DNA of 64,000 nt from Sinomonas notoginsengisoli (lineage in GTDB: Bacteria > Actinomycetota > Actinomycetes > Actinomycetales > Micrococcaceae), in assembly GCF_021554725.1 (NCBI RefSeq), contig NZ_JAIZDP010000004.1, forward strand, positions 186,001-250,000, written 5' to 3'. Made by a program: the position numbers and the translations under genes. Positions 14,416-22,341 of this stretch are shown piece by piece (positions within the stretch are counted from its first letter, which is position 1; each line of letters opens with the position of its first letter). Below the pieces are notes generated by a model, which was given only the letters and a program-made list of their open reading frames with translations, was not told where the DNA came from and did no database searches.

Positions 14416-15063
14416 ATGCCCCGCATTCAGGCCGAGTCGAACGCAGCACAGCGGGCGGTCACCCAGCGCCGCATCCTCGATGCCTTCGGGCAGCTGCTCT
14501 TCACCCGGGGCCTCCCGGGCCTGACGATGACCGACGTGGCCCGCCAGGCCGGAGTGGGCCGCACCGCCGTCTACAACTACTACGCCGACATGGAGGAGCT
14601 CCTCATCGGCTACGCGCTCGACGAGACGGGCCGGTTCCTCACAGACCTCAAGGCGCAGTTGGCCGGACTGGCCAACCCGATCGACCGCCTCGCGGTGTAC
14701 ATCCGGGCCCAGGTCGAGGACCTCTCCCGCCGCCATCTGCCCCCAGGGCCGGCCATGCGGGCGGTGCTCTCCGCGCAGTCCTTCGCCAAGCTCGGCGACC
14801 ACGTGGGTGAGCTCAACGCCCTCCTGGCCCAGATCCTGCGTGACGCGATGGCCGAGGGCTACCTGCCCGAGGCCGACGTCGAAGAGCTCCTCGGGCTGGT
14901 CCACGGCTCGCTCACGGCGAGCGCGGACCGCGGACGCGCGGAGGAGGAGGCAGAGGAGGCGGCGCACGACGCCGACACGGACCGGCGCACGGAAGCCACC
15001 GTCCGCTTCATCCAGCTCGGCGTCGGCGCACGCTTCGACGACCGGGGCCACCCGCTGCGGTGA
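14416..15063 (+). CDS. TetR family transcriptional regulator
   Basis: A 215-residue one-component repressor with an N-terminal TetR helix-turn-helix at residues 12-60 (RILDAFGQLLFTRGLPG, MTDVARQAGVGRTAVYNYY). The ligand-binding domain is followed by an acidic, Ala/Glu-rich stretch near residues 175-190 (RAEEEAEEAAHDADTD). The ligand is unknown. A 29-bp palindrome lies just upstream, consistent with autoregulation. It is divergent from the MetF unit and upstream of the EWP mini-protein island, either of which may be its target. Confidence 0.9.
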   Translation: MPRIQAESNAAQRAVTQRRILDAFGQLLFTRGLPGLTMTDVARQAGVGRTAVYNYYADMEELLIGYALDETGRFLTDLKAQLAGLANPIDRLAVYIRAQVEDLSRRHLPPGPAMRAVLSAQSFAKLGDHVGELNALLAQILRDAMAEGYLPEADVEELLGLVHGSLTASADRGRAEEEAEEAAHDADTDRRTEATVRFIQLGVGARFDDRGHPLR

Positions 15064-15182
15064 TAGGTGATGGGCGGCCGGAGCGCGACCGCACCTCTCC
15101 ACATGTCCGGCAAGCAGACCTAGCATTGACAGCGGGGAAATTGGCACAACCCTTCCATCGCAGAAGTCAGCAGGAGGACATC

Positions 15183-15437
15183 ATGGCCACGAACCAAGAC
15201 AAGAGCGCGGCAGCTCAGACAGCCAATGAAGAAGAACACCGGGCAGCGGCAGCCGGGACCACGATTACCGTGCCATCGATCACTGGAGTTGCCGACGCTC
15301 TTGAGCCTAAGCACCTCCTCTGGTTCGGTGGTCTCGCCGTGGCCGGAGCGATCGGTGTCCTCGAATGGCCGGTCGTCGCTGCAGTTGGAGTGGGCACCTA
15401 CGTCGCGGAGCGCTTCGCGCGCTCAGGCCGCAGGTAG
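15183..15437 (+). CDS. EWP-family mini membrane protein (copy A)
   Basis: An 84-residue protein. A polar N-terminus of about 25 residues is followed by a short beta-like stretch (TITVPSITGV), then PKHLLWFGGLAVAGAIG and LEWPVVAAVGVGTYVAERFA, predicted to form one long or two short membrane helices with a basic tail (RSGRR). GGAGGACATC leads into the ATG. It is nearly identical in its second half to the gene at 16490 and shares the G-x-(I/V)EWP core with those at 16266 and 21343. I do not recognise the family; proximity to a giant P-type ATPase suggests an accessory role. Confidence 0.8.
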   Translation: MATNQDKSAAAQTANEEEHRAAAAGTTITVPSITGVADALEPKHLLWFGGLAVAGAIGVLEWPVVAAVGVGTYVAERFARSGRR

Positions 15438-15509
15438 TCGCACGCGTCCGTCAGCACGAGTTACCGACTAGCGAGGCTGCGGCCTCGGGCAGCCGCAGAA
15501 GGAGACGGC

Positions 15510-15956
15510 ATGGCCAGCCTTGAAGCGAGCATCTTCATCGCGGCCACGCCGCAGGAGGTCTTCGACTACGTGCGGGACCCCGGGAACCTCGCCTCGCATC
15601 ACGGAATCGTCCTGCACGCAGAGACCCAGGGCGACGGGCCGATACGGAGCGGCTCCCGTTTCAGGGGGACGAGCCAGATCCTCGGGCGGACCTACGACTG
15701 GACGGCGGAGATTGTCGATCACGAACGGCCGAGTATTATATCTTTCCAAGCCGTAGCGGGCAACATCAGCGTCACTATTTCTTACACGATGATTCCCGAG
15801 GGGTCTGGCACGCGGCTCGCCTACCGCGCGGACGCTCGCCCCAGCCCGGGGTCAAGCTTCAGCGTGGTCGCAGAGACGCTCGCTGTAGAGGGCTACCGCC
15901 GGCAAGTGCTTGTGGATCTCGCCACCCTCGACCGCATCCTGGCCGGGTCATCCTGA
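15510..15956 (+). CDS. SRPBCC (START-like) protein
   Basis: A 148-residue protein with the polyketide-cyclase/SRPBCC helix-grip fold: EASIFIAATPQEVFDYVRDP, GSRFRGTSQILGRTYDW, ISYTMIPEGSGTRLAYRAD. Such proteins bind hydrophobic ligands in a deep cavity; none can be assigned here. AAGGAG at 15499-15504 precedes the ATG. Codons around 15733-15750 (AGT ATT ATA TCT) are unusually AT-rich for this genome. It lies inside the EWP mini-protein/P-type ATPase island, 72 nt after copy A in the same direction. Confidence 0.85.
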   Translation: MASLEASIFIAATPQEVFDYVRDPGNLASHHGIVLHAETQGDGPIRSGSRFRGTSQILGRTYDWTAEIVDHERPSIISFQAVAGNISVTISYTMIPEGSGTRLAYRADARPSPGSSFSVVAETLAVEGYRRQVLVDLATLDRILAGSS

Positions 15957-16023
15957 CCAGCCGTCGGAGGCCACCAACGAGGCACAGCCGCGCCGCCTTG
16001 CCCTCTGAGCACTCGCCCCGCGG

Positions 16024-16266
16024 CTACCGCACGAGGGCCAGGGCGTCGCCCAGTCCCCGCAGGCCTGCGCTGCGCCTAGTGAGCGCCAGCAGACGAGCCA
16101 CAACCACGAGCACCGCGAGAGGCCACTCGATCAGGCCGACGGCCGCCAGCAGGGCCGCGCCGCCGAGGAAGGCGAGCGTGTCGACCGGTGGCAGGGTTAC
16201 GGTGCCGATTCCCTCGAAGTGGATGCGGATCGGCCCTGAGGACCAGGCCTCAGCCAGTTCATTCAT
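16024..16266 (-). CDS. EWP-family mini membrane protein (copy B)
   Basis: An 80-residue protein on the opposite strand to its neighbours. A short soluble beta segment (IRIHFEGIGTVTLPPVDTLA) leads into FLGGAALLAAVG and LIEWPLAVLVVVARLLALTR, then a basic C-terminus ending LGDALALVR. It pairs with the gene at 21343: both have FEGxGTVxLPPxDxLAFLGG before the EWP core and a GDAL ending. Function is unknown. It is divergent from copy C with 223 nt between. Confidence 0.75.
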   Translation of the reverse strand: MNELAEAWSSGPIRIHFEGIGTVTLPPVDTLAFLGGAALLAAVGLIEWPLAVLVVVARLLALTRRSAGLRGLGDALALVR

Positions 16267-16489
16267 GATGCGTTCCTAAGCAATGCGGTGGAGCGCTGGA
16301 ACCGTACGCCTGTGCGTCGGGCAGTCGCCGTCATCAGTGTCACAAGGACGGTAGCGATCGCTCGTTGCCGCGAGGTTAACGGCTGTCAAACCCGAACCGA
16401 GGAAATCTCGTCCAAAGTATTCGCATCTGGCAGCGAGGGTGCCTACTATTGCGTGCTCCATTGATCCGACCGTCGACTAGGAGGATGAC

Positions 16490-16765
16490 ATGGCCACGAA
16501 CACCGGCGCCGGTAACGAGAAGGAAGCATCGTCTACTGGGACTGCAGGCGAGAATCGTCCCGGGGGCCAGGAGATCACCTTCACAGTTCCGCAGGTCCCT
16601 GCCATGGCGGAACTGATGGAGCCCAAGCGGCTGCTGTGGTTCGGCGGCCTGGCGGCTGCGGGGGTGATCGGAGTGCTCGAGTGGCCCGTGGTCGCGGCCG
16701 TGGGTATCGGCAGCTACGTCGCGGAGCGGTTCGCCGAGTCAAACCGACGCGCGGCCGGCCGCTAG
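16490..16765 (+). CDS. EWP-family mini membrane protein (copy C)
   Basis: A 91-residue paralog of copy A: MATN start, polar linker, ITFTVPQVPAMAELMEPKRL, LWFGGLAAAGVIG, LEWPVVAAVGIGSYVAERFA, basic tail. AGGAGG at 16480-16485 precedes the ATG, and TACTAT at 16443-16448 is a plausible -10. It ends 15 nt before the GTG of the large P-type ATPase, so the two are almost certainly cotranscribed. This is the strongest argument that the family works with the pump. Confidence 0.82.
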   Translation: MATNTGAGNEKEASSTGTAGENRPGGQEITFTVPQVPAMAELMEPKRLLWFGGLAAAGVIGVLEWPVVAAVGIGSYVAERFAESNRRAAGR

Positions 16766-16780
16766 ACCAGTAAGGGCGAC

Positions 16781-19700
16781 GTGCCGTTCCTATCGTCGCT
16801 TCTGCAGGCGCTCGTCGAGCCAGCCCGGCAGCTGGGGGTGCCCTCGCTTCCACAGCGGCTTCTCGATGCAGTGGTCCCGGACCGCGTCGCGGGGAGGCGC
16901 GCTTGGGCCATCGAGGGCAGGGCTGCGATCGAAGCCAAGGGCGTGAACCGTCCAGGCAGCACCAGATACATCGCGGACCTCGAGAGGGCTCTCGAGGAGC
17001 ATGCTGACGTCACGTGGGCCCGCGTCAATGCGCCGCTCGGGCGCGTCGTCATCTGCTTCCGCCCCAGCGCGGCCGGAGACGACCCCCGCGCCCATGCTCT
17101 GCTTACGGAGCTGGTCGCCATCGTCGACCGTGTCGAAGCTGAATTCACCGAATCCGCTGACAACGCTCCGCGGGGGCGAAATGCCCCTGTTGACCGCGTT
17201 GCGGTGGAGAGAGCCGCGGTTGAGCTGGCAGCGGACGTTGCCGGCTTGGCCGCGGCCGCAGCCTCGCACCTCCTGAGGCTCAGCGCGCTCCCGCAGGAGA
17301 TCGCCGCGGCGGTGTCGGTGGTAGACAGCACGCCGCGCCTGCGGGGGGTCCTTGAGCGGCAGATCGGGGAGGGGCCCGCCGATCTCGTGCTGGCCCTGAC
17401 GAACGCCGCAGCCCAGGCCATGTCCCGCGGTGTCGTAAGCCTGAGCGTCGACGCCGCCCAAAGGTACCTGATACTGGCCGAGGCCAGAGCCGAGTCCGCC
17501 GCGTGGAGGATGCACGCGGCCGGTCTGCTCGAATCCTCGGAGCGCGCACGCGCTGCTCCCATCGTCGTGGAACGCCCTCGCGAACTGCCACCCGGGCCTG
17601 TCGAGGTCTGGGCAGATCGTGCGGGGCTTCTGGGGGCAGGAGCCTTCGGCATCGCCCTGGCAGCGACACGCCACCCGAGGCAAGCTGTCGGCTTCGCGCT
17701 CGCCGCCCTCCCCAAGGCCGGTCGTGCCGGCCGCGAAGCCTTTTCATCCAGCGTCGGCAGGCACCTCGCGTCGCGGGGCGCGATCGTGCTTGACGCGGCA
17801 GCCCTTCGACGACTGGACCGCGTCACAGCGATCGTGCTCGACGTCGACCTCCTCACCACAGGCAGGCACCTGCTGGGGCAGATGAGGGTCCTTCCAGGCG
17901 CGGATCCCAAAGAGGTCGCCGAAAGGCTGCACGCCCTGTTCAGGCCCGACGACGCCCTTTCGGGGCACTCTGCGGATGGCTGGACCCTTGCTCCACTCGG
18001 CCCCGAGCTCTCCGAGCTCTCCGAACTCCCAGAGCAGCGCGGCACGCGGGAGCAGACGCACCGCGGAGACGGGACGGACCCAGTGCTCGGCCTGGTCCAC
18101 GGTGGGCAGCTCAAGGCCATGGCCGCTGTGATCGACGAGCCTCATGAGTCGCTCGAGGCTCTTGCCGCCGCCGGGCACCGATCAGGCCACCGTCTCGTCC
18201 TCGCCGGACGCCCGGGGGCCAATCTGGCACTCGCCGCCGACGATCTCCTTCCCGGGGGACCCCGCCTCGTCTCAACAGTCCGCGACCTGCAGGCGCAGGG
18301 CGAAGTGGTGATGGTGCTCTCCGGCCGGTCGCACGCCCTCGCCGCCGCGGACGTGGGAGTGGGCGTAGTGGACCCGCGCTCAGCGGACAAGGCACCGCCA
18401 TGGGGGGCGCACATACTGGCGGGGCAGGACTATGCCCTCGCCGCTCTCCTGATGGAGGCCTCGGCTGTCGCTGCAGACGTGAGCCGGCGCAGTGTCATGC
18501 TCGCACAGGCCGCGACTGCCATCGGGGGCGTCTCCGCGACCGCGGCCGCGGCAGGCTCGGCCGCCGCCCCGCGGTCCCTTCTCGCCGTGAACACCGCCGC
18601 AGCAATCTCCCTCGCGATGGGAGTCTGGTCCGCCTCGCGTCTCATCCGCGCACCCATGAGTCCTCCCATATCCCGGGTGCCATGGCATGCGATGCCGTCC
18701 GAGGCCGTCCTCGAGGCGCTGTCTACCAGCCGCGGCGGCCTCAGCTCGGACGAAGCGCGCCGGCGGCTGCGGGGCACACACGACGCCCGGCCCCCGATCC
18801 TCCGGCTCCCATCCGCGATTGCCGAAGAGCTGAACAACCCGCTGACTCCGATTCTCGGCGCCGGAGCGGCCCTCTCCGCGGCCATCGGCGCCGTCGTCGA
18901 TGCCGGGCTAGTGGCCGCCGTGGCCCTCGCGAGCGCCGTGATCGGAGGGGTCCAGCGCTCTCGCACGGACCGCGCACTCGAGGACCTGCTCTCGAAGAGC
19001 GCCTTGACGGCGCGCGTTTTGCGGGACGACGCAGAGGCTCACGTGGCCGCCGAACAACTCGTCCCGGGAGACATCGTCCTCATCGGGCCAGGCGAAGTAG
19101 TCCCCGCAGACTGCCGCATCCTGGAGGCCATCGCGCTGCAGTCGGATGAGTCATCACTGACGGGCGAACCCTTCCCGCTGGCCAAATCCGCGGAACCGAT
19201 CGTTGCCGAGAGCGTCGCCGAGAGGTCCTCCATGCTCTACGAGGGGACCACCGTGGCCGCGGGCCGCTGCACTGCTGTGGTGGTAGCGACCGGCTTCTCG
19301 ACCGAGGCCGGCCGCAGCATGGCCGCCACAAGGTCGGGCTCGGCGACGGGCGGAGTTGAAGCTCGGCTGGCGCACATCACCGATGTCACGCTTCCGATCA
19401 CCCTCGTGTCCGCGGTCGGGGTCATCGCTGCAGGTCTCCTCCGGGGTCGTCCGTTCAGGAGCACGGTGGGCGCGGGCGTGAGCTTGGCAGTCGCTGCCGT
19501 CCCCGAGGGGCTGCCCTTCCTGGTCAGCGCCGCCCAGCTCGCTTCGGCGCGCCGCCTCTCGACACGGGGGACCTTGGTGCGGAATCCGAGGACGATCGAA
19601 GCTCTCGGCCGAGTCGACGTCCTCGGCTTCGACAAGACGGGCACTCTCACGGAGGGACGCATCAGGCTGGAATCAGCGACCGGCGCTGACGGCAAGCTTG

Positions 19701-21283
19701 ATTCCCTCCACGCGCTGCAGACGCGTAGCCGAGGAGTCGTGGCGGCTGGGCTGCGTGCCACGCCTTCAGCTCGGCGCCCGCTCGCTCACATGACCGACCG
19801 CGCCATCTCTTCCGCGGCCCGCGAGGCCGGCATCAGCCCAGACGAGGGAGCGCAGGGCTGGAAGAGGCTCAGCGCGCTGCCCTTCGAGCCATCGCGCTCC
19901 TACCACGCGACCCTGGCCAGCACCCACGAGGGCACCCTGCTCAGCGTCAAAGGCGCCCCCGAGACTGTTCTAGCACGCTGCACGGCCGTGAGGTCCGGCA
20001 ACCGGCGACGAGGCCTCGACGAGGCTCGGCGCCGGCGGCTGACACGGCGCGTCGAAAAGCTCGCCTCAGAGGGGTACCGCCTCCTGGCAGTAGCAGAAGC
20101 GCGCCTCGATCAGTCCCCCCGGCAACTCGAGGACGATGACGTTGTGGGCCTGACGTTCCTCGGCTTCCTTGCCTTGACCGACCCGGTGCGCCCGGCGGCC
20201 GCGGCCTCTGTCGAAGCCCTCCGCGCAGCCGGTGTCCAGATCCTGATGATCACCGGCGATCACCCGGGAACCGCCGCGGCGGTCGCACAGCGGCTCGACC
20301 TTCTCGAGGACGGGGGCAGGGTGATCACCGGGACCGAGATCGATGCCCTCGGTGACGACGAACTAGCGCGGGTGCTCCCGCATGTTGCAGTGGTGGCCCG
20401 GGGCACCCCGGCGCACAAAGTACGCGTCGTCCAAACGCTGCAGGGCCTCGGCAAGACGGTCGCCATGACGGGCGACGGCGCGAACGATGCCCCCGCCATA
20501 CGCCTTGCCGACGTCGGGATCGCCCTGGGGCGCAGGGGCACTCCGGCTGCGCGAGCCGCAGGGGACCTCGTGGTCACGGACGACAGGCTCGAGACGATCA
20601 TCGCGGCGCTCGTCGAAGGACGGGCAATGTGGGGCTCGGTGCGTGAAGCGCTCGGCATCCTTGTGGGAGGGAACCTCGGGGAGATCGCCTTCACCCTGCT
20701 AGGAGCGCTGGCCACGGGCCTGTCGCCCCTGCGGGCACGGCAACTCCTGCTGGTGAACCTGCTCACCGACCTTGCTCCCGCTCTGGCCGTCGCCCTGCGA
20801 CCGCCTCACGCGGCCTCGACCGAGGCTCTGCTGGCAGAAGGACCGGAAGCCTCACTCGGCTCGGCGCTGACCAGAGAAGTAGGGTTCAGGGCGGCCCTGA
20901 CGACGGCCGGGGCCGGCGCCGGCTGGGCTCTCGCCAGACTGCTCGGGCTCCGCCGAGCGGCCCCGACCGTGGGACTCGTCTCACTCGTGGCGACCCAACT
21001 CGGGCAGACCATCACGGTCGGAGGCCCCTCTCGCGGCGTCGTTGTCAGCGGAGCCATCTCCTTGGCTGCCCTCGCCGCCGTAATCCAGACCCCTGGTCTG
21101 AGCGCCTTCTTCGGTTCGGTGCCCCTCGGCCCCCTAGGGTGGGGGATCGCCGCTGGAGCGAGCCTTGCCGTGGTCCTTCTCGGTGCCCTCGTGGCCAGGA
21201 GGAAGTTCTCCGAAACGCCCGAGTACAACGAGCGTATGCGGGCCGTTGAGGACTCGGCGTCCGCGGTCCCGGAGGTCGCATGA
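16781..21283 (+). CDS. Giant P-type ATPase (CtpI/CtpH-like, 1500 aa)
   Basis: A cation-translocating P-type ATPase about 600 residues longer than usual at the N-terminus, like mycobacterial CtpI/CtpH. The first ~620 residues include HMA-like and partly degenerate ATPase-like regions (an MVLSGRSHALAAADVGVGVV stretch recalls the hinge motif). The canonical pump follows: TGE at 794-796, PEGLP at 908-912 (as in P2 calcium-type pumps), phosphorylation site [10 protein letters not shown] with Asp951, and hinge TGDGANDAP from 1230. NLLTD lies in the C-terminal membrane domain. The GTG start lies 15 nt after mini-protein copy C. Substrate ion is unknown; Ca/Mg/Mn-type is inferred from PEGLP. Confidence 0.92.
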   Translation: MPFLSSLLQALVEPARQLGVPSLPQRLLDAVVPDRVAGRRAWAIEGRAAIEAKGVNRPGSTRYIADLERALEEHADVTWARVNAPLGRVVICFRPSAAGDDPRAHALLTELVAIVDRVEAEFTESADNAPRGRNAPVDRVAVERAAVELAADVAGLAAAAASHLLRLSALPQEIAAAVSVVDSTPRLRGVLERQIGEGPADLVLALTNAAAQAMSRGVVSLSVDAAQRYLILAEARAESAAWRMHAAGLLESSERARAAPIVVERPRELPPGPVEVWADRAGLLGAGAFGIALAATRHPRQAVGFALAALPKAGRAGREAFSSSVGRHLASRGAIVLDAAALRRLDRVTAIVLDVDLLTTGRHLLGQMRVLPGADPKEVAERLHALFRPDDALSGHSADGWTLAPLGPELSELSELPEQRGTREQTHRGDGTDPVLGLVHGGQLKAMAAVIDEPHESLEALAAAGHRSGHRLVLAGRPGANLALAADDLLPGGPRLVSTVRDLQAQGEVVMVLSGRSHALAAADVGVGVVDPRSADKAPPWGAHILAGQDYALAALLMEASAVAADVSRRSVMLAQAATAIGGVSATAAAAGSAAAPRSLLAVNTAAAISLAMGVWSASRLIRAPMSPPISRVPWHAMPSEAVLEALSTSRGGLSSDEARRRLRGTHDARPPILRLPSAIAEELNNPLTPILGAGAALSAAIGAVVDAGLVAAVALASAVIGGVQRSRTDRALEDLLSKSALTARVLRDDAEAHVAAEQLVPGDIVLIGPGEVVPADCRILEAIALQSDESSLTGEPFPLAKSAEPIVAESVAERSSMLYEGTTVAAGRCTAVVVATGFSTEAGRSMAATRSGSATGGVEARLAHITDVTLPITLVSAVGVIAAGLLRGRPFRSTVGAGVSLAVAAVPEGLPFLVSAAQLASARRLSTRGTLVRNPRTIEALGRVDVLGFDKTGTLTEGRIRLESATGADGKLDSLHALQTRSRGVVAAGLRATPSARRPLAHMTDRAISSAAREAGISPDEGAQGWKRLSALPFEPSRSYHATLASTHEGTLLSVKGAPETVLARCTAVRSGNRRRGLDEARRRRLTRRVEKLASEGYRLLAVAEARLDQSPRQLEDDDVVGLTFLGFLALTDPVRPAAAASVEALRAAGVQILMITGDHPGTAAAVAQRLDLLEDGGRVITGTEIDALGDDELARVLPHVAVVARGTPAHKVRVVQTLQGLGKTVAMTGDGANDAPAIRLADVGIALGRRGTPAARAAGDLVVTDDRLETIIAALVEGRAMWGSVREALGILVGGNLGEIAFTLLGALATGLSPLRARQLLLVNLLTDLAPALAVALRPPHAASTEALLAEGPEASLGSALTREVGFRAALTTAGAGAGWALARLLGLRRAAPTVGLVSLVATQLGQTITVGGPSRGVVVSGAISLAALAAVIQTPGLSAFFGSVPLGPLGWGIAAGASLAVVLLGALVARRKFSETPEYNERMRAVEDSASAVPEVA

Positions 21284-21308
21284 GCGCTGCAGCAGCAGAC
21301 CCTACCCC

Positions 21309-21334
21309 TTCTGACATCTGGTTCTGACATCTGG
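21309..21334 (+). repeat. Perfect 13-bp tandem duplication
   Basis: TTCTGACATCTGG occurs twice back to back (21309-21321 and 21322-21334) between the ATPase stop and the GTG of mini-protein copy D. It looks like a recent slippage duplication that lengthens the spacer; no function is evident. Confidence 0.8.
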
Positions 21335-21342
21335 GAGAGAGC

Positions 21343-21618
21343 GTGACTGAGACCGAAAGAGCCGCCAAGGGAACCTATTCCGCGGCTGCGAGCAAAGCGG
21401 GCAATCACCGCACCATCATTATCAACTTCGAAGGTGTCGGCACGGTGCGACTCCCGCCCACCGACGAGCTGGCCTTCCTCGGTGGAATCGGTGTGCTGGC
21501 CGCAGCAGGGATTATCGAGTGGCCGGTTGCCGGGGTCCTGGCTGCAGGGCATCTCATCTCGCGCATCTCGAGAAACAAGACCCTCAAAGCCTTCGGAGAC
21601 GCCCTCGAAGAGGCCTGA
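21343..21618 (+). CDS. EWP-family mini membrane protein (copy D)
   Basis: A 91-residue paralog of copy B: polar N-terminus, IIINFEGVGTVRLPPTDELA, FLGGIGVLAAAGIIEWPVAG, VLAAGHLISRISRNKTLKAF and GDALEEA. It starts at a GTG preceded by GGGAGAG, 59 nt downstream of the ATPase on the same strand, so the ATPase is bracketed by one member of each mini-protein subtype. The basic RISRNK segment after the membrane region suggests a cytoplasmic C-terminus. Function is unknown. Confidence 0.8.
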   Translation: MTETERAAKGTYSAAASKAGNHRTIIINFEGVGTVRLPPTDELAFLGGIGVLAAAGIIEWPVAGVLAAGHLISRISRNKTLKAFGDALEEA

Positions 21619-21696
21619 GCGTAGAACCTGGGTCCGTCCACGTCCTGTAGGCCGAGCGCGGACTGGATTCGGCCACGGTGGAGGTTCGAAGCACGG

Positions 21697-22341
21697 TCAT
21701 TCGCGGGATGTGGGCGCAGTGGAGCTCGCAGTCGGGAGTGTGCACGCGATCGGGCCGGGCGTCTGGTCAACCACGGCGGGGTCCGTGAGCACCTTGAAGG
21801 ACGAGCCGAGGATGAGGTCAACGCTCGCATCCGAGCGGCCGTCCCGGATGTACACGCTCCCCGGCACATTGCGCTGGAGCGTGAACGCGGCGGCCTCTCC
21901 CCCGAACCCCCCGCGCACTACGGCGGGCGACTCCATCGCCGTCCGCTCGTTGCCCACGGCCCTCACGATGAACTTGCGCGCCTTGAGCTGGTCCGCCACC
22001 TCGGCCGCGAGGCCTTCCTTGCCTGCGCCGTTGAGCACGTTGACGGTGACCTTCTCGGGCGGCAGGTAGTCGTAGGTGCCGGACGGGCAGGTCGTGGGGT
22101 GCGTGGGCTTGCTCCCCGGTTCCGGGATCGTGAGACGGCCCGACAGGACTTCCAAGGCCGCGCCGACTCCTGCGAACAGGAGGGCCGCGAGGAGGCCGAT
22201 CGCAACGGCATGGCGGGCCTTCCTCCACTGGCGGGAGCGCTGCCGCGCATCGGCATCCTCCTCGAACTGCGTGCGCAGCTGGCTGCCGCTCACCACGTGG
22301 TGTCCGTGGTACCGGGTCAAGTCCTGGGGCTTGCGTGCCAT
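21697..22341 (-). CDS. Membrane-anchored LytR C-terminal domain protein
   Basis: A 214-residue protein. A basic cytoplasmic N-terminus (ARKPQDLTRYHGHHVVSGSQ) and one membrane helix (about residues 44-65, VAIGLLAALLFAGVGAALEV) precede an extracytoplasmic LytR_C domain (VTVNVLNGAGKEGLAAEVAD, ADQLKARKFIVRAVGNE). LytR_C domains accompany LCP cell-wall ligases; without a catalytic LCP domain it may be an accessory factor. The ATG at 22341 lies 7 nt after the stop of the partner gene, implying coupling. Confidence 0.87.
   Translation of the reverse strand: MARKPQDLTRYHGHHVVSGSQLRTQFEEDADARQRSRQWRKARHAVAIGLLAALLFAGVGAALEVLSGRLTIPEPGSKPTHPTTCPSGTYDYLPPEKVTVNVLNGAGKEGLAAEVADQLKARKFIVRAVGNERTAMESPAVVRGGFGGEAAAFTLQRNVPGSVYIRDGRSDASVDLILGSSFKVLTDPAVVDQTPGPIACTLPTASSTAPTSRE

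What the first reader, a model, noticed from the sequence alone, without database searches (positions are those of the whole stretch)
15183..21618. Four paralogous 'EWP' mini membrane proteins around a giant P-type ATPase
Seen: four 80-91 residue proteins (15183, 16266 minus, 16490, 21343) share a short beta-like segment, a Pro, a (W/L)FGG or FLGG turn, and G-(I/V)-(I/L/V)EWP followed by a membrane helix and basic tail. They form two subtypes (WFGG...LEWPVV and FEGxGTVxLPP...IEWP), and one of each brackets the 1500-residue ATPase; copy C ends only 15 nt before it. An SRPBCC protein is included. Known: small membrane PacL proteins (DUF1490) assist mycobacterial P1B-type ATPases; these sequences do not resemble them and the pump is P2-like (PEGLP). 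Inference: an independent class of P-type ATPase accessory peptides, perhaps forming a membrane scaffold, with the SRPBCC protein handling a lipid or hydrophobic ligand.
Basis: partly seen in the sequence, partly recalled or inferred. Interest (0 to 1): 0.75.

Follow-up and report, generated by a model that had tools for sequence, protein, structure and literature searches.

The report
Small membrane partners of giant pumps
Four small membrane proteins sit around a giant, uncharacterised ion pump in this bacterium; relatives of both occur side by side in many actinobacteria, and in two species one is fused to the pump, so they are probably overlooked helper subunits of that pump.

Summary
In detail: four 80-91 aa proteins (A 15183, B 16266 minus, C 16490, D 21343) surround a 1500 aa P-type ATPase. 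They form two homologous subtypes, called here U-type (A, C) and D-type (B, D), and match no Pfam or NCBIfam model.

In 266 class genomes, 51 of 74 EWP places lie within 2.5 kb of a giant ATPase (34 of 51 without the genomes used for training), and 47 of 53 EWP genomes carry one. In the window's genus the same 4 of 15 genomes have both. In two Gordonia species the D-type domain is fused to the pump's C-terminus.

The pump is of the giant CtpH/CtpI-like (FUPA24) kind. Its C-half resembles Ca2+-ATPases; its N-half is predicted to be a degenerate P1B-like ATPase.

Best explanation: EWP proteins are dedicated accessory subunits, PacL-like in role but not in sequence. Against it: 29 of 68 giant pumps have no adjacent EWP hit; orphan EWP genes exist; eight mycobacterial loci hold a constrained EWP pair without the pump between, though those genomes keep a giant pump elsewhere. 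The SRPBCC gene shares the island but shows no general link. No interaction was tested.

The parts
15064..21696 (.). inserted module: the stretch between the TetR gene and the gene at 21697-22341 (LytR_C-like by my reading)
   Evidence: absent from 4 of 15 same-genus genomes, in which the two flanking genes lie side by side, 25, 25 and 28 bases apart in three of them and a few bases apart by tblastn in the fourth
15183..15437 (+). EWP protein A, U-type (84 aa)
15510..15956 (+). SRPBCC / Polyketide_cyc2 protein, passenger of the module; no general link to EWP loci seen
   Evidence: Pfam PF10604 E 1.1e-16; only homologue among fetched loci of other genomes at 33% in the L031 locus
16024..16266 (-). 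EWP protein B, D-type (80 aa)
16490..16765 (+). EWP protein C, U-type (91 aa), ends 15 nt before the ATPase start
16781..21283 (+). giant P-type ATPase, 1500 aa, CtpH/CtpI-like (FUPA24 kind)
17690..18421 (+). degenerate phosphorylation domain in the N-half (aa 304-547), homologous to the P-domain of the C-half
   Evidence: hhalign probability 95.5, E 1.6e-8; N-half model pTM 0.86; Foldseek hits P1B ATPases and KdpB, best E 2.5e-10
18701..21280 (+). catalytic C-half (aa 641-1500) with DKTGTLT, PEGLP, GGNLGE and NLLTD
   Evidence: Pfam; best solved relatives are Ca2+-ATPases, E 2e-145; invariant columns
21343..21618 (+). EWP protein D, D-type (91 aa), 59 nt downstream of the ATPase
21517..21525 (+). 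E59-W60-P61 of protein D, at the break between the two hydrophobic helices
   Evidence: acidic-W-P in 56 of 56 aligned D-type rows; helix break

Best explanation
The EWP proteins are dedicated small membrane accessory subunits of giant CtpH/CtpI-like (FUPA24) P-type ATPases of actinobacteria. Typically a U-type protein is encoded just upstream of the pump and a D-type just downstream. The D-type has a short beta hairpin, a hydrophobic helix-break-helix carrying the acidic-Trp-Pro motif, and a polar last helix; the U-type shares the core. I infer that the hydrophobic segment docks on the membrane domain of the pump and stabilises, assembles or tunes it, as PacL, KdpF or phospholamban do for other P-type ATPases. 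I infer that both ends of the D-type face the cytosol, so the segment may be a re-entrant hairpin with the acidic residue deep in the bilayer. The pump most likely exports Ca2+ or a similar divalent ion (inferred from its C-half). Shown here: homology, linkage, co-occurrence, fusion, predicted secondary structure. Inferred: physical contact, topology, ion, effect on activity.
For: Linkage: 51 of 74 EWP places within 2.5 kb of a giant ATPase in 266 class genomes; with the D-type profile alone, whose rows were not picked by linkage, 40 of 59; without the 12 genomes that gave rows to the profiles, 34 of 51 and 28 of 43. Co-occurrence: 47 of 53 EWP genomes have the ATPase, present in 55 of 266, p 5e-37; without training genomes 35 of 41 against 43 of 254, p 4e-29; phylum sample 15 of 15 EWP genomes among the 36 of 396 with the ATPase; window genus, the same 4 of 15 genomes. 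Fusion: D-type domain at the C-terminus of the pump in Gordonia sp. ABSL49_1 and G. amicalis, with a separate adjacent gene in three other genomes of that genus. Order: of the 80 named loci kept by the tool, 2 fused and 62 with the D-type gene directly downstream of the ATPase, 14 of them as ORFs overlapping by 4 bases. Selection: [ED]59, W60, P61 in 56 of 56 D-type rows. Spread: EWP-bearing pumps occur in both main clusters of the pump tree. Membrane: Rv0424c, which I take for the tuberculosis D-type by recalled synteny, has one predicted TM and was overexpressed in the membrane fraction of E. coli (PMC2396618, passages).
Against: No interaction, expression or activity data. 29 of 68 giant ATPase genes of the class sample have no adjacent EWP hit, and none was found at the 20 ATPase loci fetched from the phylum sample, some cut by contig ends. 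Fifteen EWP places of the class sample are homologues without a giant pump nearby. Eight mycobacterial loci hold U and D without the pump between them, the genes still constrained (dN/dS median D 0.14, U 0.21, a ninth such locus included); all eight genomes keep a giant ATPase elsewhere (seven of 1607-1631 codons), but a ninth genome with a lone D-type has no giant ATPase found. The order is not universal: in two genomes of one family a D-type gene lies upstream on the other strand. Genomes in the samples are related, so the p values overstate the case. The U-type profile holds rows found by being next to the pump, and all rows of the pump profile come from EWP-bearing loci.
Confidence: 0.7

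Rival explanations
1. The EWP proteins are general membrane organisers (scaffold or curvature proteins) of actinobacteria whose main role does not need the giant pump; they serve several membrane proteins, the pump being the commonest client.
For: Constrained U-D pairs stand in mycobacteria without the pump between them; orphan copies exist in several families; in two genomes an EWP segment lies near an 882-946 aa P-type ATPase instead; one genome has a D-type and no giant ATPase found.
Against: Most EWP genomes carry a giant ATPase somewhere (47 of 53; 8 of 8 genomes with pump-less pairs), and the one clear fusion seen is with the giant pump.
Confidence: 0.2
2. EWP genes and pump share only regulation or transfer history (one stress or metal island), without working together physically.
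For: In the window they sit in one inserted module that also carries an unrelated SRPBCC gene.
Against: The neighbourhood recurs in many families with different flanks, mostly U-type upstream and D-type downstream on the pump's strand, and two species fuse the domains.
Confidence: 0.08
3. The EWP proteins take part in transport itself: the membrane-embedded acidic residue (and His70 in D-types) forms part of an ion or proton path beside the pump.
For: The acidic residue sits in a hydrophobic segment and is D or E in 56 of 56 D-type rows; His70 in 51 of 56.
Against: The C-half already has Ca2+-ATPase-like membrane motifs; the B-like protein of L031 has Gly in place of the acid.
Confidence: 0.07

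Closest known systems
PacL proteins (DUF1490, PF07371) of mycobacterial P1B ATPases (PMC9374683, PMC13043812, passages read)
   Same: small membrane protein encoded beside a P-type ATPase, actinobacterial; more than one per genome in some species; proposed scaffold
   Different: no Pfam match to PF07371; the partner's catalytic half is P2A-like, not P1B; acidic-Trp-Pro helix break and beta hairpin instead of a TM helix with Glu/Ala repeats and a metal-binding tail
Phospholamban, sarcolipin, KdpF and similar small P-type ATPase subunits (recalled; named in PMC10654040, passages)
   Same: small hydrophobic partner of a P-type pump
   Different: no Pfam match of any kind for the four window proteins; EWP often come as two homologous subtypes flanking one pump gene
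CtpH / CtpI giant ATPases (FUPA24, TC 3.A.3.24)
   Same: the pump: double length, P-type motifs in the C-half, uncharacterised (PMC3573892 and PMC10654040, passages read)
   Different: EWP partners are not mentioned in the passages read; 1608-1618 aa mycobacterial pumps, which I take for CtpI by size, showed no adjacent EWP
Rv0424c and Rv0426c of Mycobacterium tuberculosis
   Same: by recalled synteny (def, xthA, U, ctpH, D, thiC, thiD; gene names read by me from the order in L057) they would be the D- and U-type partners of CtpH; 10 and 13.9 kDa with 1 and 2 predicted TM (PMC2396618, table passages)
   Different: their sequences were not fetched. Of ten papers that name them (listing) none has them in title or abstract; I looked into two. 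PMC12357739 gives these tags to thi genes, which conflicts with this placement

Membership tests
giant CtpH/CtpI-like P-type ATPase (FUPA24) | about twice the usual length with a large N-terminal part | tested here: met
   1500 aa; N-half aligns with 12 relatives at 25-71% identity
giant CtpH/CtpI-like P-type ATPase (FUPA24) | P-type motifs in the C-half | tested here: met
   E1-E2 ATPase, HAD, Cation_ATPase_C at aa 741-1471
giant CtpH/CtpI-like P-type ATPase (FUPA24) | direct sequence match to M. tuberculosis CtpH or CtpI | not tested
   those entries were not fetched; other mycobacterial relatives were
P2A Ca2+-ATPase | closest solved relatives are Ca2+ pumps, with PEGL and the M5/M6 ion motifs | tested here: met
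   Listeria Ca2+-ATPase lmo0841 2e-145, then SPCA1 and SERCA; PEG.P, N..E and N..TD invariant in 12 of 12; which residues bind Ca2+ is recalled
P2A Ca2+-ATPase | transports Ca2+ | not testable with these tools
   needs a transport assay; the best NCBIfam Ca2+ model scores below its cutoff (392.5 against 798.3 bits)
PacL (DUF1490) | matches PF07371 | tested here: not met
   no match at E 1 for the four window proteins; not among the families matched by the 56 D-type rows at E 1 or the 14 U-type rows at E 0.1
PacL (DUF1490) | encoded with a P1B ATPase | tested here: not met
   catalytic half is P2A-like; only the degenerate N-half is P1B-like
P-type ATPase accessory subunit (role) | gene linkage and fusion with one pump class | tested here: met
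P-type ATPase accessory subunit (role) | physical complex with the pump | not testable with these tools
   no complex prediction or interaction data

The most novel reading that the evidence does not exclude
A whole family of P-type pumps is unrecognised multi-subunit machinery: a double-headed chain, with a dead HMA-bearing P1B-like ATPase joined to a live P2A-like Ca2+-type ATPase, held by two homologous re-entrant-hairpin subunits (U and D) that can also serve a paralogous pump in trans. Mycobacterial CtpH with its two small neighbours would be one such complex.
Probability: 0.4. Interest if true: 0.8.

Novelty: new variant of a known kind. Interest (0 to 1): 0.62.

Why it matters
A 2023 review says CtpH and CtpI have not been characterised and might constitute a unique family (PMC10654040, passage), and a 2012 survey reported no counterpart of the beta subunits of Na,K- and H,K-ATPases in the tuberculosis complex (PMC3573892, abstract and passages). 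If EWP proteins are subunits, tests of such pumps alone would test incomplete machines, and the substrate question becomes directly testable with the two small genes included. The degenerate P1B-like half offers a second idea: an inactive sensor or regulatory half built into the pump.

Tried and rejected
SRPBCC as a general partner: rejected (one weak homologue). Known small-protein families: none (scattered weak hits only; the hits to histone H1-like models, best E 8.2e-6, concern one of 14 U-type rows and I take them to come from a Lys/Ala-rich tail). Solved relatives of the D-type: none by sequence at E 1, no Foldseek match at E 0.001. Plasmid spread: no match in PLSDB for C or D at E 0.001. 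Viral contigs, protein C only: 11 pattern matches, no relative. Border repeats of the module: no shared direct stretch of 10 bases or more in the two 160-base stretches compared. Three hits look false (G435: inside an unrelated 311-aa protein; G506, G580: nothing on re-scan). Alignment A5 had one row in a wrong frame and was not used. Not tried: coevolution between D and pump, complex prediction. The p values treat genomes as independent, which they are not.

Full report
Observation. C finds A at E 2.6e-27, D finds B at E 1.7e-17 and even A at 1.9e-4, so all four are related. Two subtypes exist: U-type (A, C; EPKxLLWFGG...LEWPVV) and D-type (B, D; FEGxGTVxLPP...IEWP). Their profiles align over 44 columns with probability 97.7 and E 2.5e-12. 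None of the four has a Pfam or NCBIfam match at E 1, and wider sets give only scattered weak hits.

Distribution in the genus. Of 15 genomes of the genus, 4 have the giant ATPase and the same 4 have EWP genes. In all four a U-type gene lies directly upstream of the ATPase; in three a D-type of the D kind lies directly downstream, while the fourth (L031) has a B-like gene there on the same strand. In the window the module is an insertion: in four genus genomes without it the TetR gene and the gene at 21697-22341 are neighbours, 25, 25 and 28 bases apart in three and by tblastn a few bases apart in the fourth; DNA similarity to the window stops at 15041-15078 and resumes at about 21732. The three other module-bearing genomes hold the module and their copy of the right-hand flank gene on different contigs. 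Copies of D-type or B-type away from any pump also exist in the genus, including one in the window's own genome that looks decayed (L024, L026, L027, L030).

Distribution beyond. In 396 genomes of the phylum a profile of genus EWP proteins (A1) hit 15 genomes, all among the 36 with a giant ATPase (p 1e-17). Wider profiles for D-type (A3) and U-type (A4) and one for the pump's N-half (A2) were run on 266 class genomes. Of 74 EWP places, 51 lie within 2.5 kb of a giant ATPase; 53 genomes have EWP, 55 the ATPase, 47 both. The D-type profile alone gives 40 of 59 places and 45 of 49 genomes. Twelve of the 266 genomes had given rows to the profiles; without them 34 of 51 places, 28 of 43 D-profile places, and 35 of 41 genomes remain. 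Of the 23 unlinked places, flanks show one with the pump's N-terminus at the contig end (G574), two with an 882-946 aa P-type ATPase nearby (G477, G529), two at contig ends (G591, G599), three that look false, and 15 homologues without a giant pump nearby, of which at least G000:C15 looks decayed. From the pump's side 39 of 68 ATPase genes of the class sample have an adjacent EWP gene, 29 of 53 without training genomes. At 20 ATPase loci of the phylum sample, fetched because no A1 hit lay beside them, the profiles A1, A3 and A4 found no EWP; several of these loci are cut by contig ends. Among them are 1608-1618 aa mycobacterial pumps. All 13 rows of A2 came from EWP-bearing loci, so the pump profile leans towards those. 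Linked places by position: 34 upstream and 13 downstream on the pump's strand, 4 upstream on the other strand.

Fusion. G333 encodes a 1745-aa protein whose part after the pump is a D-type domain followed by a Lys/Ala-rich tail. A second genome has the same fusion, and three more of that genus have the separate D-type gene directly downstream of the pump: 5 of 5 D-bearing genomes among 41 searched. The tool kept the best 80 of 241 named relatives: 2 fused, 62 with the D-type gene directly downstream of the ATPase (L190 recognised only), 2 at 1.7-2.6 kb, 5 cut by a contig end, 8 with U and D but no pump between, 1 D alone.

Pump-less pairs. In eight mycobacterial loci (record titles include M. 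asiaticum and M. gordonae), and in L053, U and D stand 231-534 bases apart with no pump between and both ORFs intact. Median dN/dS over the 36 pairs of these nine is 0.14 for D and 0.21 for U; the pair L174-L181 has dN 0.005 against dS 0.60 for D. Whether the pump was lost once or several times was not tested, so part of this constraint may predate the loss. All eight genomes reached from the named loci still carry a giant ATPase elsewhere; in seven its open frame has 1607-1631 codons, the size I recall for CtpI. The lone D of L165 lies in a genome with none found. The pair may serve the paralogous pump in trans, or do something else.

The pump. The C-half is closest among solved structures to Ca2+-ATPases: lmo0841 of Listeria (E 2e-145), SPCA1, SERCA. 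PEG.P, N..E and N..TD in the presumed M4, M5 and M6 are invariant in 12 of 12 relatives; that these are Ca2+ ligands of SERCA is recalled. CtpH is listed with SERCA as nearest human protein (PMC4119724, table passage). The N-half shows an HMA-like stretch (best E 4.8e-6, copper ATPase 1p6t) and a region homologous to the P-domain of its own C-half with the DKTGT motif lost (probability 95.5, E 1.6e-8). Its model (pLDDT 83, pTM 0.86, 48 rows) matches P1B ATPases and KdpB (best E 2.5e-10; query-normalised TM-scores 0.22-0.38 in the 50 rows listed). I read it as a degenerate P1B-like half. [quoted passage not shown] one search for a duplication found nothing, and the original FUPA24 paper was not seen, so novelty of this point is unsure.

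Anatomy of the small proteins. The D model (mean pLDDT 69, pTM 0.40, block means 84-90 over residues 41-70) has two strands (25-29, 33-37), helices 40-54 and 60-76, a break at 55-59 just before W60-P61, and a last helix 82-90. Residue 59 is D or E in 56 of 56 rows, W60 and P61 in 56 of 56, H70 in 51 of 56. In the fusions the D domain follows the end of the pump, cytosolic in ten-helix P2 pumps (established knowledge), and precedes a tail with 37 K/R against 8 D/E, or 23 against 8, which should also stay inside. Both ends inside, with two 15-17 residue helices, would suit a re-entrant hairpin; a kinked single span is not excluded.

Pump tree. With 34 pumps (19 with adjacent EWP, 15 without), the label needs 5 changes, 4 of them forced by well supported branches, and occurs in both main clusters; the root is a midpoint for drawing only. 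This suits an old partnership with losses but does not prove one gain.

Literature. Listings for Rv0424c/Rv0426c, CtpH/CtpI, Rv0425c or ctpH (25 of 182 listed), FUPA24, PacL (12 of 28 listed) and duplication show no paper about such a partner. Passages read in PMC9374683, PMC13043812, PMC10654040, PMC3573892, PMC4119724, PMC2396618 and PMC12357739 do not describe one. Only open-licence papers were searchable, and no paper was read whole.

Verdict. A real, conserved, uncurated family of small membrane proteins tied to a poorly known class of giant pumps. A role as accessory subunits is the best reading (0.7); physical contact, ion and effect remain to be shown.

Noticed in passing
window 16781-18700: The N-terminal half of the giant ATPase looks like a degenerate HMA-bearing P1B-type ATPase without the DKTGT motif, so the pump seems double-headed.
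   Followed up: yes
L131, L174, L180, L181, L189, L195, L199, L201, L053: Mycobacterial loci with no pump between the two EWP genes, while both EWP genes are intact and constrained.
   Followed up: partly
L100 6805-8229 and L102 4128-5633: An EWP segment within a longer ORF lies beside a gene that I read as UppP-like and an 882-946 aa P-type ATPase rather than the giant one.
   Followed up: no
L024 1243-1572 (window's own genome, contig C15): A fifth EWP copy of D-type, with no pump on its 6-kb contig; its N-terminal part no longer matches, so it may be decayed.
   Followed up: no
L026 8638-9618: Remnant of a C-like EWP sequence next to an intact B-like gene, away from any pump: probably a decayed copy of the module.
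   Followed up: no
L061 and L119, C-terminal tails; U-type tails of several mycobacterial rows and L067: Lys/Ala-rich tails follow the EWP segment; one U-type row even hits histone H1-like models. They could bind acidic lipid or DNA.
   Followed up: no
L127, L141, L142, L145, L146, L151, L152, L155, L156, L179, L185, L186, L187, L193: ATPase and D-type ORFs overlap by 4 bases (14 of 80 loci), suggesting coupled translation.
   Followed up: partly
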